Assembly: GCA_035533015.1 (NCBI GenBank)
Contig: DATLUQ010000054.1
Span: 1-56,027, forward strand
Direction of reading: 5' to 3'
Length of the DNA stretch: 56,027 nt
From: Gemmatimonadaceae bacterium
GTDB lineage: Bacteria > Gemmatimonadota > Gemmatimonadetes > Gemmatimonadales > Gemmatimonadaceae
The notes under the pieces were generated by a model. That model was not told the origin of the DNA. It saw only the letters and a program-made list of their open reading frames with translations, and made no database searches. A program made the position numbers and the translations under genes. Shown in pieces: positions 54,792 through 56,027 of this stretch (its first letter is position 1; each line of letters begins with the position of its first letter).

Positions 54792-55598
54792 CTACCACCC
54801 CGCCGCTATCCCGAACAGCATCTGGCCGTCGTTGTACGAGTGGGCGCCGCGGGCAAGGGCCCCGCTGTCGTAGTTGTCGGTGAAGGCCAGCGAAAGCGAG
54901 ACCGTCCCGTTCATCTTCTCCCGCAGTTCCGTACTCGAACTGACCAGGAACTGCGAGACTCCCGTGGCGCTCGGTTGCCAGGACGTGGCGTGGGTAATCT
55001 GCACCCGGTCGTCGAAGGCGTGGTGGTACTTGGCCAGCCAGGAAAAGCGGGCGATCCGCTCGTCGGGAAAGTGGACACTGCTGTCCAGCGGGGTGGTCTG
55101 CTCCGCGGACAGCGACAGGCTGAGGCTCGCGGCGCTGGCGGGGGTTTGCTGGATGTTCCATTTGGCGCCCGCGCCCAGGCTGTACCGGGACGCGATGCGT
55201 TTCTCGAGGTTCGACTCGAAGGTCGTGGTGACGAAGCTCGAGAAGGGCGCGAGGGGGCGGAAGGTCATGGCCACCGTGCCGAGCCAGAGCCGCTTGATGA
55301 CCGTGCGGGGACCCGATTGGACAGAGGCTTCGCCGTACTGGGTCTGCAACTCGGCACTGACGCCGAGCGCGGAGTCGACCCGGGCCAACCTGCCATCGGC
55401 GCCGAGCACCTGTTGCTGCGTGTTGCCGAAGAAGATGCTGGCGTTGGCCAGGGCGCCGCCCGACCAGAGCTTGGGGAGTTTCGCGGACGGTTTGGGCGTC
55501 GGCGTCAGGGCCACGGCAGGCGCGACGGGGACAGTGCTCAGCAGCACAAAGGCCAGTGCGGATGCGCCGGCCTGACGGAGTTCGAGGAACGACGGCAT
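54792..55598 (-). CDS. Predicted outer-membrane beta-barrel protein
   Basis: 268 residues from the ATG at 55598 (ATG at 55625 possible). Signal peptide about 1-32 (GASALAFVLLSTVPVAPAVA). The rest alternates hydrophobic and polar strands with aromatic residues, and the C-terminus is a Trp after GIAAGW. It is like the DUF481 group of small outer-membrane proteins, but I cannot assign the family firmly. Isolated, 35 bases before the M20 gene, and next to the tRNA remnant. Confidence 0.65.
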   Translation of the reverse strand: MPSFLELRQAGASALAFVLLSTVPVAPAVALTPTPKPSAKLPKLWSGGALANASIFFGNTQQQVLGADGRLARVDSALGVSAELQTQYGEASVQSGPRTVIKRLWLGTVAMTFRPLAPFSSFVTTTFESNLEKRIASRYSLGAGAKWNIQQTPASAASLSLSLSAEQTTPLDSSVHFPDERIARFSWLAKYHHAFDDRVQITHATSWQPSATGVSQFLVSSSTELREKMNGTVSLSLAFTDNYDSGALARGAHSYNDGQMLFGIAAGW

Positions 55599-55668: not shown

Positions 55669-55722
55669 TGCCGGGGCCGGGTCTCGAACCCGGATGGGGT
55701 TGCCCCCAAGGGATTTTAAGTC
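55669..55722 (-). tRNA. tRNA-Leu(UAA), 3' fragment only
   Basis: Minus strand, 3' side intact: anticodon loop CTTAAAA (55720-55714, anticodon UAA at 55718-55716), the 3' anticodon-stem strand TCCCT, a long class II variable arm built on GGGG/CCCC, the T-arm CCGGG-TTCGAGA-CCCGG (55693-55677), and the acceptor strand CCCCGGC plus discriminator A (55669). The 5' side fails: TCTGA cannot pair with TCCCT beyond two bases, and no GCCGGGG acceptor strand occurs upstream. It is therefore not a working tRNA gene; it looks like the duplicated end of an attachment site. Confidence 0.7.
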
Positions 55723-55724
55723 AG

Positions 55725-56027
55725 ACGGACCCCACCCATCGCGATGCGGCGAGTTGCGCCACTTTCGCGCTTCTTCATCCGTCGTCGCAGGGGGCCGCGA
55801 TACCGGTGGCCTGACCACGACCCACCGCGATGCGCCGCTGTTGGACGGCGAAATCCGCCTCGGTTTTCCACGCAATTTTCCCCGCGAGGTCGAGACCGCA
55901 ATTCGCTTTGCGGCCGACCGATTACTGGCCCGGGGACGCTCCCGGCAATCCCCGCAATGTCACAAAATCTTAGTGGCGTTTGGCTTCTCGCTGGCAGTCC
56001 AAGTAGGCCTCCCTGTGCGAGGACCGC
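55725..56027. other. Unassigned right-edge sequence, candidate end of an integrated element
   Basis: Beyond the tRNA fragment the G+C content is somewhat lower and no gene is recognisable. Short open frames exist on both strands (for example a 61-codon minus-strand frame whose stop is the anticodon TAA), but none has a domain or coding signal I trust. If the tRNA fragment is an attachment site, this is the start of the integrated DNA. Confidence 0.45.

What the first reader, a model, noticed from the sequence alone, without database searches (positions are those of the whole stretch)
55669..55722. tRNA-Leu(UAA) 3' half: likely attachment site of an integrative element beyond the window
The fragment runs from the anticodon region to the discriminator base and is intact in the T-arm, variable arm and acceptor strand, but its 5' side is unrelated sequence. 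Many tyrosine-recombinase islands and phages use tRNA genes this way: one end rebuilds a whole tRNA, the other keeps a short 3' duplicate. Here chromosomal genes lie on the 3' side, so the element should lie to the right, with a complete tRNA-Leu(UAA) at its far end.
Basis: partly seen in the sequence, partly recalled or inferred. Interest (0 to 1): 0.6.

Follow-up and report, generated by a model that had tools for sequence, protein, structure and literature searches.

The report
Mobile element swaps essential leucine tRNA
A mobile DNA element has cut this bacterium's only leucine tRNA(UAA) gene in two at the anticodon and brought along its own different copy, so the host probably now depends on the invader to read one codon; the trick is known from actinobacterial phages but not, as far as I found, from this phylum.

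Summary
In detail: window 55669-55722 (-) is the 3' part of tRNA-Leu(UAA), identical over 54 bases to the intact same-genus gene. The window is a whole contig that ends 305 bases beyond it. The missing 5' half lies 417 bases from the end of another contig of this genome (C13:214042-214082). The halves share only GACTTAAAATC (11 bp); joined, they give a perfect tRNA-Leu(UAA), and three same-genus genomes have the uncut gene between the same neighbours. So an element did integrate, to the right. Instead a different, complete tRNA-Leu(UAA) sits 129 bp inside the element and is the only intact one in the assembly. This is the layout of 'tRNA-dependent lysogeny' of actinobacteriophages (PMC10865867). 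Three more genomes of the family are cut at the same gene; in two, the element's replacement tRNA carries a group I intron, and in one (G178) the whole 3.3-kb relict with both tRNA halves is on one contig. Function of the replacement tRNA, the integrase and the element's nature (phage or other) are inferred: its interior is not assembled.

The parts
55669..55722 (-). 3' half of the host's native tRNA-Leu(UAA) gene (att junction on the 3' side)
   Evidence: 100% match to positions 31-84 of the same-genus intact gene, E 4.9e-22; read directly
55712..55722 (-). 11-bp common core GACTTAAAATC shared with the 5' half at C13:214072-214082 and with the element's own tRNA
   Evidence: only three occurrences in the genome
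55723..56027 (.). 305 bases of the element's end; no match elsewhere in the genome and no recognised gene (Pfam)
   Evidence: absent from the empty sites of three same-genus genomes
54795..55598 (-). Chromosomal neighbour on the 3' side: DUF481 gene
   Evidence: PF04338 E 1.2e-15; homologue directly 3' of the intact tRNA-Leu in G001-G003, 68-74% identity
53761..54756 (-). Chromosomal neighbour: M20-family peptidase gene
   Evidence: PF01546 E 1.2e-21; 87-90% identity in G001-G003, 74% in G178, where it lies beyond the 3' half

Best explanation
A site-specific integrative element, probably using a tyrosine recombinase, crossed over inside the anticodon loop of the single-copy tRNA-Leu(UAA) gene. 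Element and host share only an 11-bp core there, so both junctions leave a broken tRNA: the 5' half on contig C13 and the 3' half in the window. The element carries its own, sequence-divergent tRNA-Leu(UAA), 129 bp inside the 5'-half junction on the opposite strand. I infer that this gene replaces the lost host tRNA and thereby makes the host dependent on keeping the element. This is the arrangement called tRNA-dependent lysogeny in actinobacteriophages. Shown: the split, the core, the empty sites, the foreign ends, the element-borne tRNA as the only intact tRNA-Leu(UAA) in the assembly, and the same replacement layout in two relatives. Inferred: expression and function of the replacement tRNA, the integrase, and whether the element is a prophage, an ICE or a relict.
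For: 5' half at C13:214042-214082 directly after tRNA-Gly, followed by foreign sequence. Joined halves fold as tRNA-Leu(UAA); the actual junction does not. Three same-genus genomes have the uncut gene at 98-100% identity, with tRNA-Gly on its 5' side and homologues of the window's genes on its 3' side. The element's tRNA-Leu(UAA) is complete (ARAGORN; Rfam 62.2 bits) and the only intact one among 48 tRNAs. UUA codons occur in 78 of 561 called genes, so the tRNA is needed. The same gene is cut in three other genomes of the family: G013 has 5' half, integrase, then intron-bearing tRNA-Leu(UAA); G178 has the whole relict on one contig with a 7-bp core; G082 has tRNA-Gly, 5' half, and the start of a related integrase. 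The known system has 8-17-bp cores, no rebuilt tRNA and a cognate element tRNA (PMC10865867).
Against: The two contig ends are not joined, so the element's interior, its integrase and its size are unknown. No sigma-70 consensus promoter was found upstream of the element's tRNA. The genome is a draft (95.2% complete), so a further intact tRNA-Leu(UAA) could be missing from it.
Confidence: 0.87

Rival explanations
1. Canonical tRNA island: the element rebuilds the tRNA at one end and leaves a displaced 3' fragment at the other.
For: Canonical islands at this gene exist in the family: G019 has an intact tRNA-Leu(UAA) plus displaced 3' fragments 10.6 and 15 kb away.
Against: In the window's genome the 5' half is itself broken, after GACTTAAAATC. 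No further copy of the core and no rebuilt gene exists in the assembly.
Confidence: 0.04
2. Split or intron-bearing tRNA: the two halves belong to one working gene joined by self-splicing or trans-splicing.
For: Group I introns do sit in the anticodon loop of tRNA-Leu(UAA), including in the replacement tRNAs of G013 and G178.
Against: The two sequenced element ends show no intron family at E up to 1 and contain a tRNA gene on the opposite strand. Pairing between the sequence after the 5' half and that before the 3' half is little more than one standard deviation from shuffles (-77.6 against -70.0, sd 6.2).
Confidence: 0.04
3. Assembly or binning artefact, or a chromosomal rearrangement inside the tRNA gene rather than an insertion.
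For: The halves are on two contigs of a draft genome, and both contigs end a few hundred bases beyond the break.
Against: Contig ends in this assembly overlap by 141 bases, so the assembler joined on long words, not 11 bp. Both breaks fall on the same 11 bp and both flanks are syntenic with intact relatives. In G178 the complete layout is on one contig.
Confidence: 0.05

Closest known systems
tRNA-dependent lysogeny of actinobacteriophages (Fionnbharth, LeBron, Gaia and others; PMC10865867)
   Same: Integration in a host tRNA gene with a core too short to rebuild it (8-17 bp there, 11 bp here), and a cognate tRNA gene on the element.
   Different: Host is Gemmatimonadaceae; target is tRNA-Leu(UAA), which is not in that paper's table; phage nature and integrase are not shown for the window's element; in two relatives the element's tRNA has a group I intron.
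Canonical tDNA genomic islands (Islander type; PMC4383910)
   Same: Target gene, displaced 3' fragment, chromosomal genes on the fragment's 3' side.
   Different: No rebuilt tRNA at the other end; the replacement is a separate gene inside the element.
Lactobacillus johnsonii prophage Lj965 (cited in PMC10865867) and Sinorhizobium prophages discussed in PMC11476347
   Same: Reported as prophages in tRNA genes where the host tRNA is not rebuilt or is substituted by a phage-borne one.
   Different: Other phyla; not compared at sequence level here.
tRNA-Leu(UAA) group I introns of cyanobacteria and plastids (PMC4476775)
   Same: The replacement tRNAs of G013 and G178 have a group I intron in tRNA-Leu(UAA).
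   Different: The window's element tRNA has none; in the relatives the intron is on an integrative element next to an integrase gene.

Membership tests
tRNA-dependent lysogeny | Integration inside a host tRNA gene | tested here: met
   Both halves found; uncut gene in three same-genus genomes
tRNA-dependent lysogeny | Short common core that cannot rebuild the tRNA | tested here: met
   11 bp; junction does not fold as a tRNA, joined halves do
[quoted passage not shown]
   Complete tRNA-Leu(UAA) at C13:214212-214292, inside the insertion
tRNA-dependent lysogeny | Disrupted host tRNA is single-copy and needed | tested here: met
   No other intact tRNA-Leu(UAA) in the assembly; UUA in 78 of 561 called genes; draft genome, 95.2% complete; need itself is inferred from codon use
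tRNA-dependent lysogeny | Tyrosine integrase encoded by the element | tested here: inconclusive
   Not in the sequenced 417 and 305 bases of the window's element (P0001 no hit in G000); present next to the junction in G013 and as a remnant in G178
tRNA-dependent lysogeny | Element is a temperate phage | not testable with these tools
   Element interior not assembled; its tail has no match beyond the tRNA in phage records and viral-contig pattern scans were empty
tRNA-dependent lysogeny | Element tRNA required for stable integration | not testable with these tools
   Needs a genetic experiment
Canonical tDNA island | Target tRNA rebuilt at one junction | tested here: not met
Intron-bearing tRNA-Leu(UAA) | Group I intron between the halves | tested here: not met
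   No RF00028 match at E up to 1 in the sequenced ends

The most novel reading that the evidence does not exclude
Gemmatimonadaceae host a recurrent class of integrative elements that replace the sole tRNA-Leu(UAA) gene with their own. Some replacements carry a self-splicing group I intron that splits the recombination core of the new gene and so could shield it from the integrase. Some elements have lost their integrase and persist as immobile relics because the host can no longer do without their tRNA (as G178 suggests).
Probability: 0.4. Interest if true: 0.72.

Novelty: new member of a known kind. Interest (0 to 1): 0.55.

Why it matters
tRNA-dependent lysogeny was described in actinobacteriophages, and its authors asked how prevalent it is elsewhere. 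Here four genomes of one Gemmatimonadaceae family have the same tRNA gene cut, three of them with a replacement gene visible on the element. It means a core translation gene can be swapped by a mobile element, and it gives a molecular reason why such elements would be kept even after they can no longer move. The intron-bearing versions offer a testable link between group I introns in tRNA-Leu(UAA) and mobile elements.

Tried and rejected
(1) 5'-half-only BLAST hits in G049, G084, G023, G069, G063, G131, G110 and G140 were intact, diverged tRNA-Leu(UAA) genes; G039 was tRNA-Leu(UAG). (2) G313 and G390 matched the 'cut' pattern but are intact. (3) Two identical copies in G001 come from two strains binned together (contigs 82% identical), not from an island. 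(4) Contig-end overlaps to extend C13 or C54: none in the bin. (5) Own-genome integrases as candidates: five PF00589 hits; the one near the end of C28 is an integron integrase (TIGR02249, 409.7 bits); none could be tied to the element. (6) No relatives of the element's tail beyond the tRNA itself in 396 genomes, phages or plasmids. (7) The G013 integrase is not in IMG/VR by peptide patterns and has one weak hit in phage records (22% identity). (8) A search for the 3' half in G013 hit only unrelated sequence. (9) Arm-type repeats around the attP implied by the two junctions: nothing convincing.

Full report
What is there. The window is one entire contig (G000:C54, 56,027 bases) of a 66-contig draft genome of 3.03 Mb. 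Two genomes of the same family are public MAGs titled Gemmatimonadaceae bacterium Bin_122_2R (G013) and Gemmatimonadetes bacterium RYN_359 (G178), so the window is most likely from Gemmatimonadaceae. At 55669-55722 on the minus strand lies the 3' part of tRNA-Leu(UAA), from GACTTAAAATC in the anticodon arm to the discriminator base. It is 100% identical over 54 bases to positions 31-84 of the intact gene (E 4.9e-22). No tool calls it a tRNA, because it is incomplete.

The other half. GACTTAAAATC occurs three times in the genome. One is the window fragment. The second is C13:214072-214082, the end of GCCGGGGTGGCGAAACTGGTAGACGCGAGGGACTTAAAATC, a perfect 5' half that follows tRNA-Gly(GCC) by about 60 bases and then runs into foreign sequence (GCTCACTGG...). 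The third is inside a complete, different tRNA-Leu(UAA) at C13:214212-214292 on the opposite strand, 129 bases beyond the core. C13 ends 417 bases after the core, C54 305 bases after it.

The empty site. The two halves joined through the shared 11 bp give a textbook tRNA-Leu(UAA) (acceptor GCCGGGG/CCCCGGC, anticodon stem AGGGA/TCCCT). The three same-genus genomes G001, G002 and G003 have exactly this gene, 98-100% identical, uncut. On its 5' side lie tRNA-Gly(GCC) and a homologue of the C13 gene (72-73% identity in the longer matches); on its 3' side lie homologues of the window's DUF481 gene (68-74%) and M20 peptidase gene (87-90%). The window's genome therefore has an insertion between C13 and C54. 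Assembly artefacts are unlikely: neighbouring contigs in this assembly overlap by 141 bases, far more than the 11-bp core.

Not a canonical island. In a canonical tRNA island the element supplies the missing 3' half and rebuilds the gene; G019, in the same family, shows this mode at the same gene (intact tRNA plus displaced 3' fragments). Here neither junction is a tRNA. The genome has 48 tRNA genes by Rfam, with Leu anticodons UAG, CAA, CAG, GAG and one UAA, and that UAA gene is the one in the element. It scores 62.2 bits, differs from the native gene in acceptor stem, anticodon stem and variable arm, and has no close relative in the same genus. UUA codons are rare (0.38 per 1000) but occur in 78 of 561 genes called by a simple ORF method, and by standard wobble rules (established knowledge) only the UAA anticodon reads them. 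So the insertion should be lethal unless the element's tRNA works.

Relatives with the same event. A pattern search for cut 5' halves in 396 genomes, followed by a search with the integrase found in the first hit, gave three more cases in the same family. G013: tRNA-Gly, cut 5' half, a 433-aa integrase (PF14659 E 8.7e-6; PHROG integrase E 1.1e-36), then a tRNA-Leu(UAA) interrupted by about 250 nt; removing the insert after U34 gives a perfect tRNA-Leu(UAA), and the insert matches the group I intron model, though below Rfam's cut-off (27.7 bits, E 3e-5). G178: everything on one contig, namely end of tRNA-Gly, cut 5' half, an integrase remnant lacking its N-terminal part and with broken frame, intron-bearing tRNA-Leu(UAA) (RF00028 51.3 bits, above cut-off), a Fic-family gene (PF02661 E 2.3e-16), then the 3' half and, further on, the same peptidase gene as in the window. 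The two copies of its 7-bp core TAAAATC are 3,314 bases apart. G082: tRNA-Gly, cut 5' half and the first 66 residues of a 78%-identical integrase at a contig end. G178 shows that the layout is not an artefact of broken contigs. The window's element is of another make: no integrase within 417 bases of the 5' half, replacement tRNA on the opposite strand, no intron.

Comparison with the known. Guerrero-Bustamante and Hatfull (PMC10865867) describe tRNA-dependent lysogeny: an integrase uses an attB in a tRNA gene, the core is 8-17 bp, the host tRNA is not rebuilt, and the phage encodes the same isotype, which they show is required for lysogeny. Their cases target tRNA-Lys(TTT), tRNA-Ile2(CAT) and tRNA-Leu(CAA) in actinobacterial hosts; they note one Lactobacillus prophage and leave prevalence elsewhere open. 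A later paper suggests a case in Sinorhizobium (PMC11476347), while phiLM21-like prophages there rebuild the tRNA (PMC12429752). A literature search for Gemmatimonadaceae with prophage, tRNA and integrase returned one paper, a species description, which I did not open. The window's element meets every sequence-level feature of the kind that could be tested; integrase, phage nature and functional requirement remain open. I therefore call it a new member of a known kind, by layout, with the mechanism inferred.

Limits. The element interior is not in the assembly. Four small contigs read as N and could not be inspected. The replacement tRNA's promoter was not found by a sigma-70 consensus scan. 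For G013 and G082 the 3' halves were not located.

Noticed in passing
L208:2667-2958 (Stappia sp. MMSF_3263) and L210:4358-4650 (Breoghania corrubedonensis): The same type of group I intron interrupts tRNA-Leu(UAA) in two alphaproteobacteria; in Breoghania it directly follows relaxase-like, TraG-like and M48-peptidase-like genes (recognised by eye), as at the end of a conjugative element. Suggests transfer of the intron-bearing tRNA between phyla.
   Followed up: partly
L205:9058-12440 (G178:C364): Complete 3.3-kb relict of the element class with integrase remnant, intron-bearing tRNA-Leu(UAA), Fic gene and a further remnant: an apparently immobile element that may be kept for its tRNA.
   Followed up: partly
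G000:C28:108011-109021 (L127:8012-9022): Integron integrase gene (TIGR02249, 409.7 bits) about 1 kb from a contig end: possible chromosomal integron in this genome.
   Followed up: no
G019:C34:128946-144040 (L094, L196): Two displaced 3' fragments of tRNA-Leu(UAA) after one intact copy: tandem canonical islands at the same gene.
   Followed up: partly
G000:C11:11636-12190: Tyrosine-recombinase gene about 260 bases from tRNA-Ser(UGA): possibly another tRNA-targeting element.
   Followed up: no
window 55735-55750 and 55821-55835: Similar short stretches CATCGCGATGCG and CACCGCGATGCG lie on the element side of the core; could be recombinase arm sites or chance.
   Followed up: no
G126:C3:439-488 (L096): A 3' half of tRNA-Leu(UAA) at a contig start in another family of the order, besides an intact copy on C12.
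   Followed up: no
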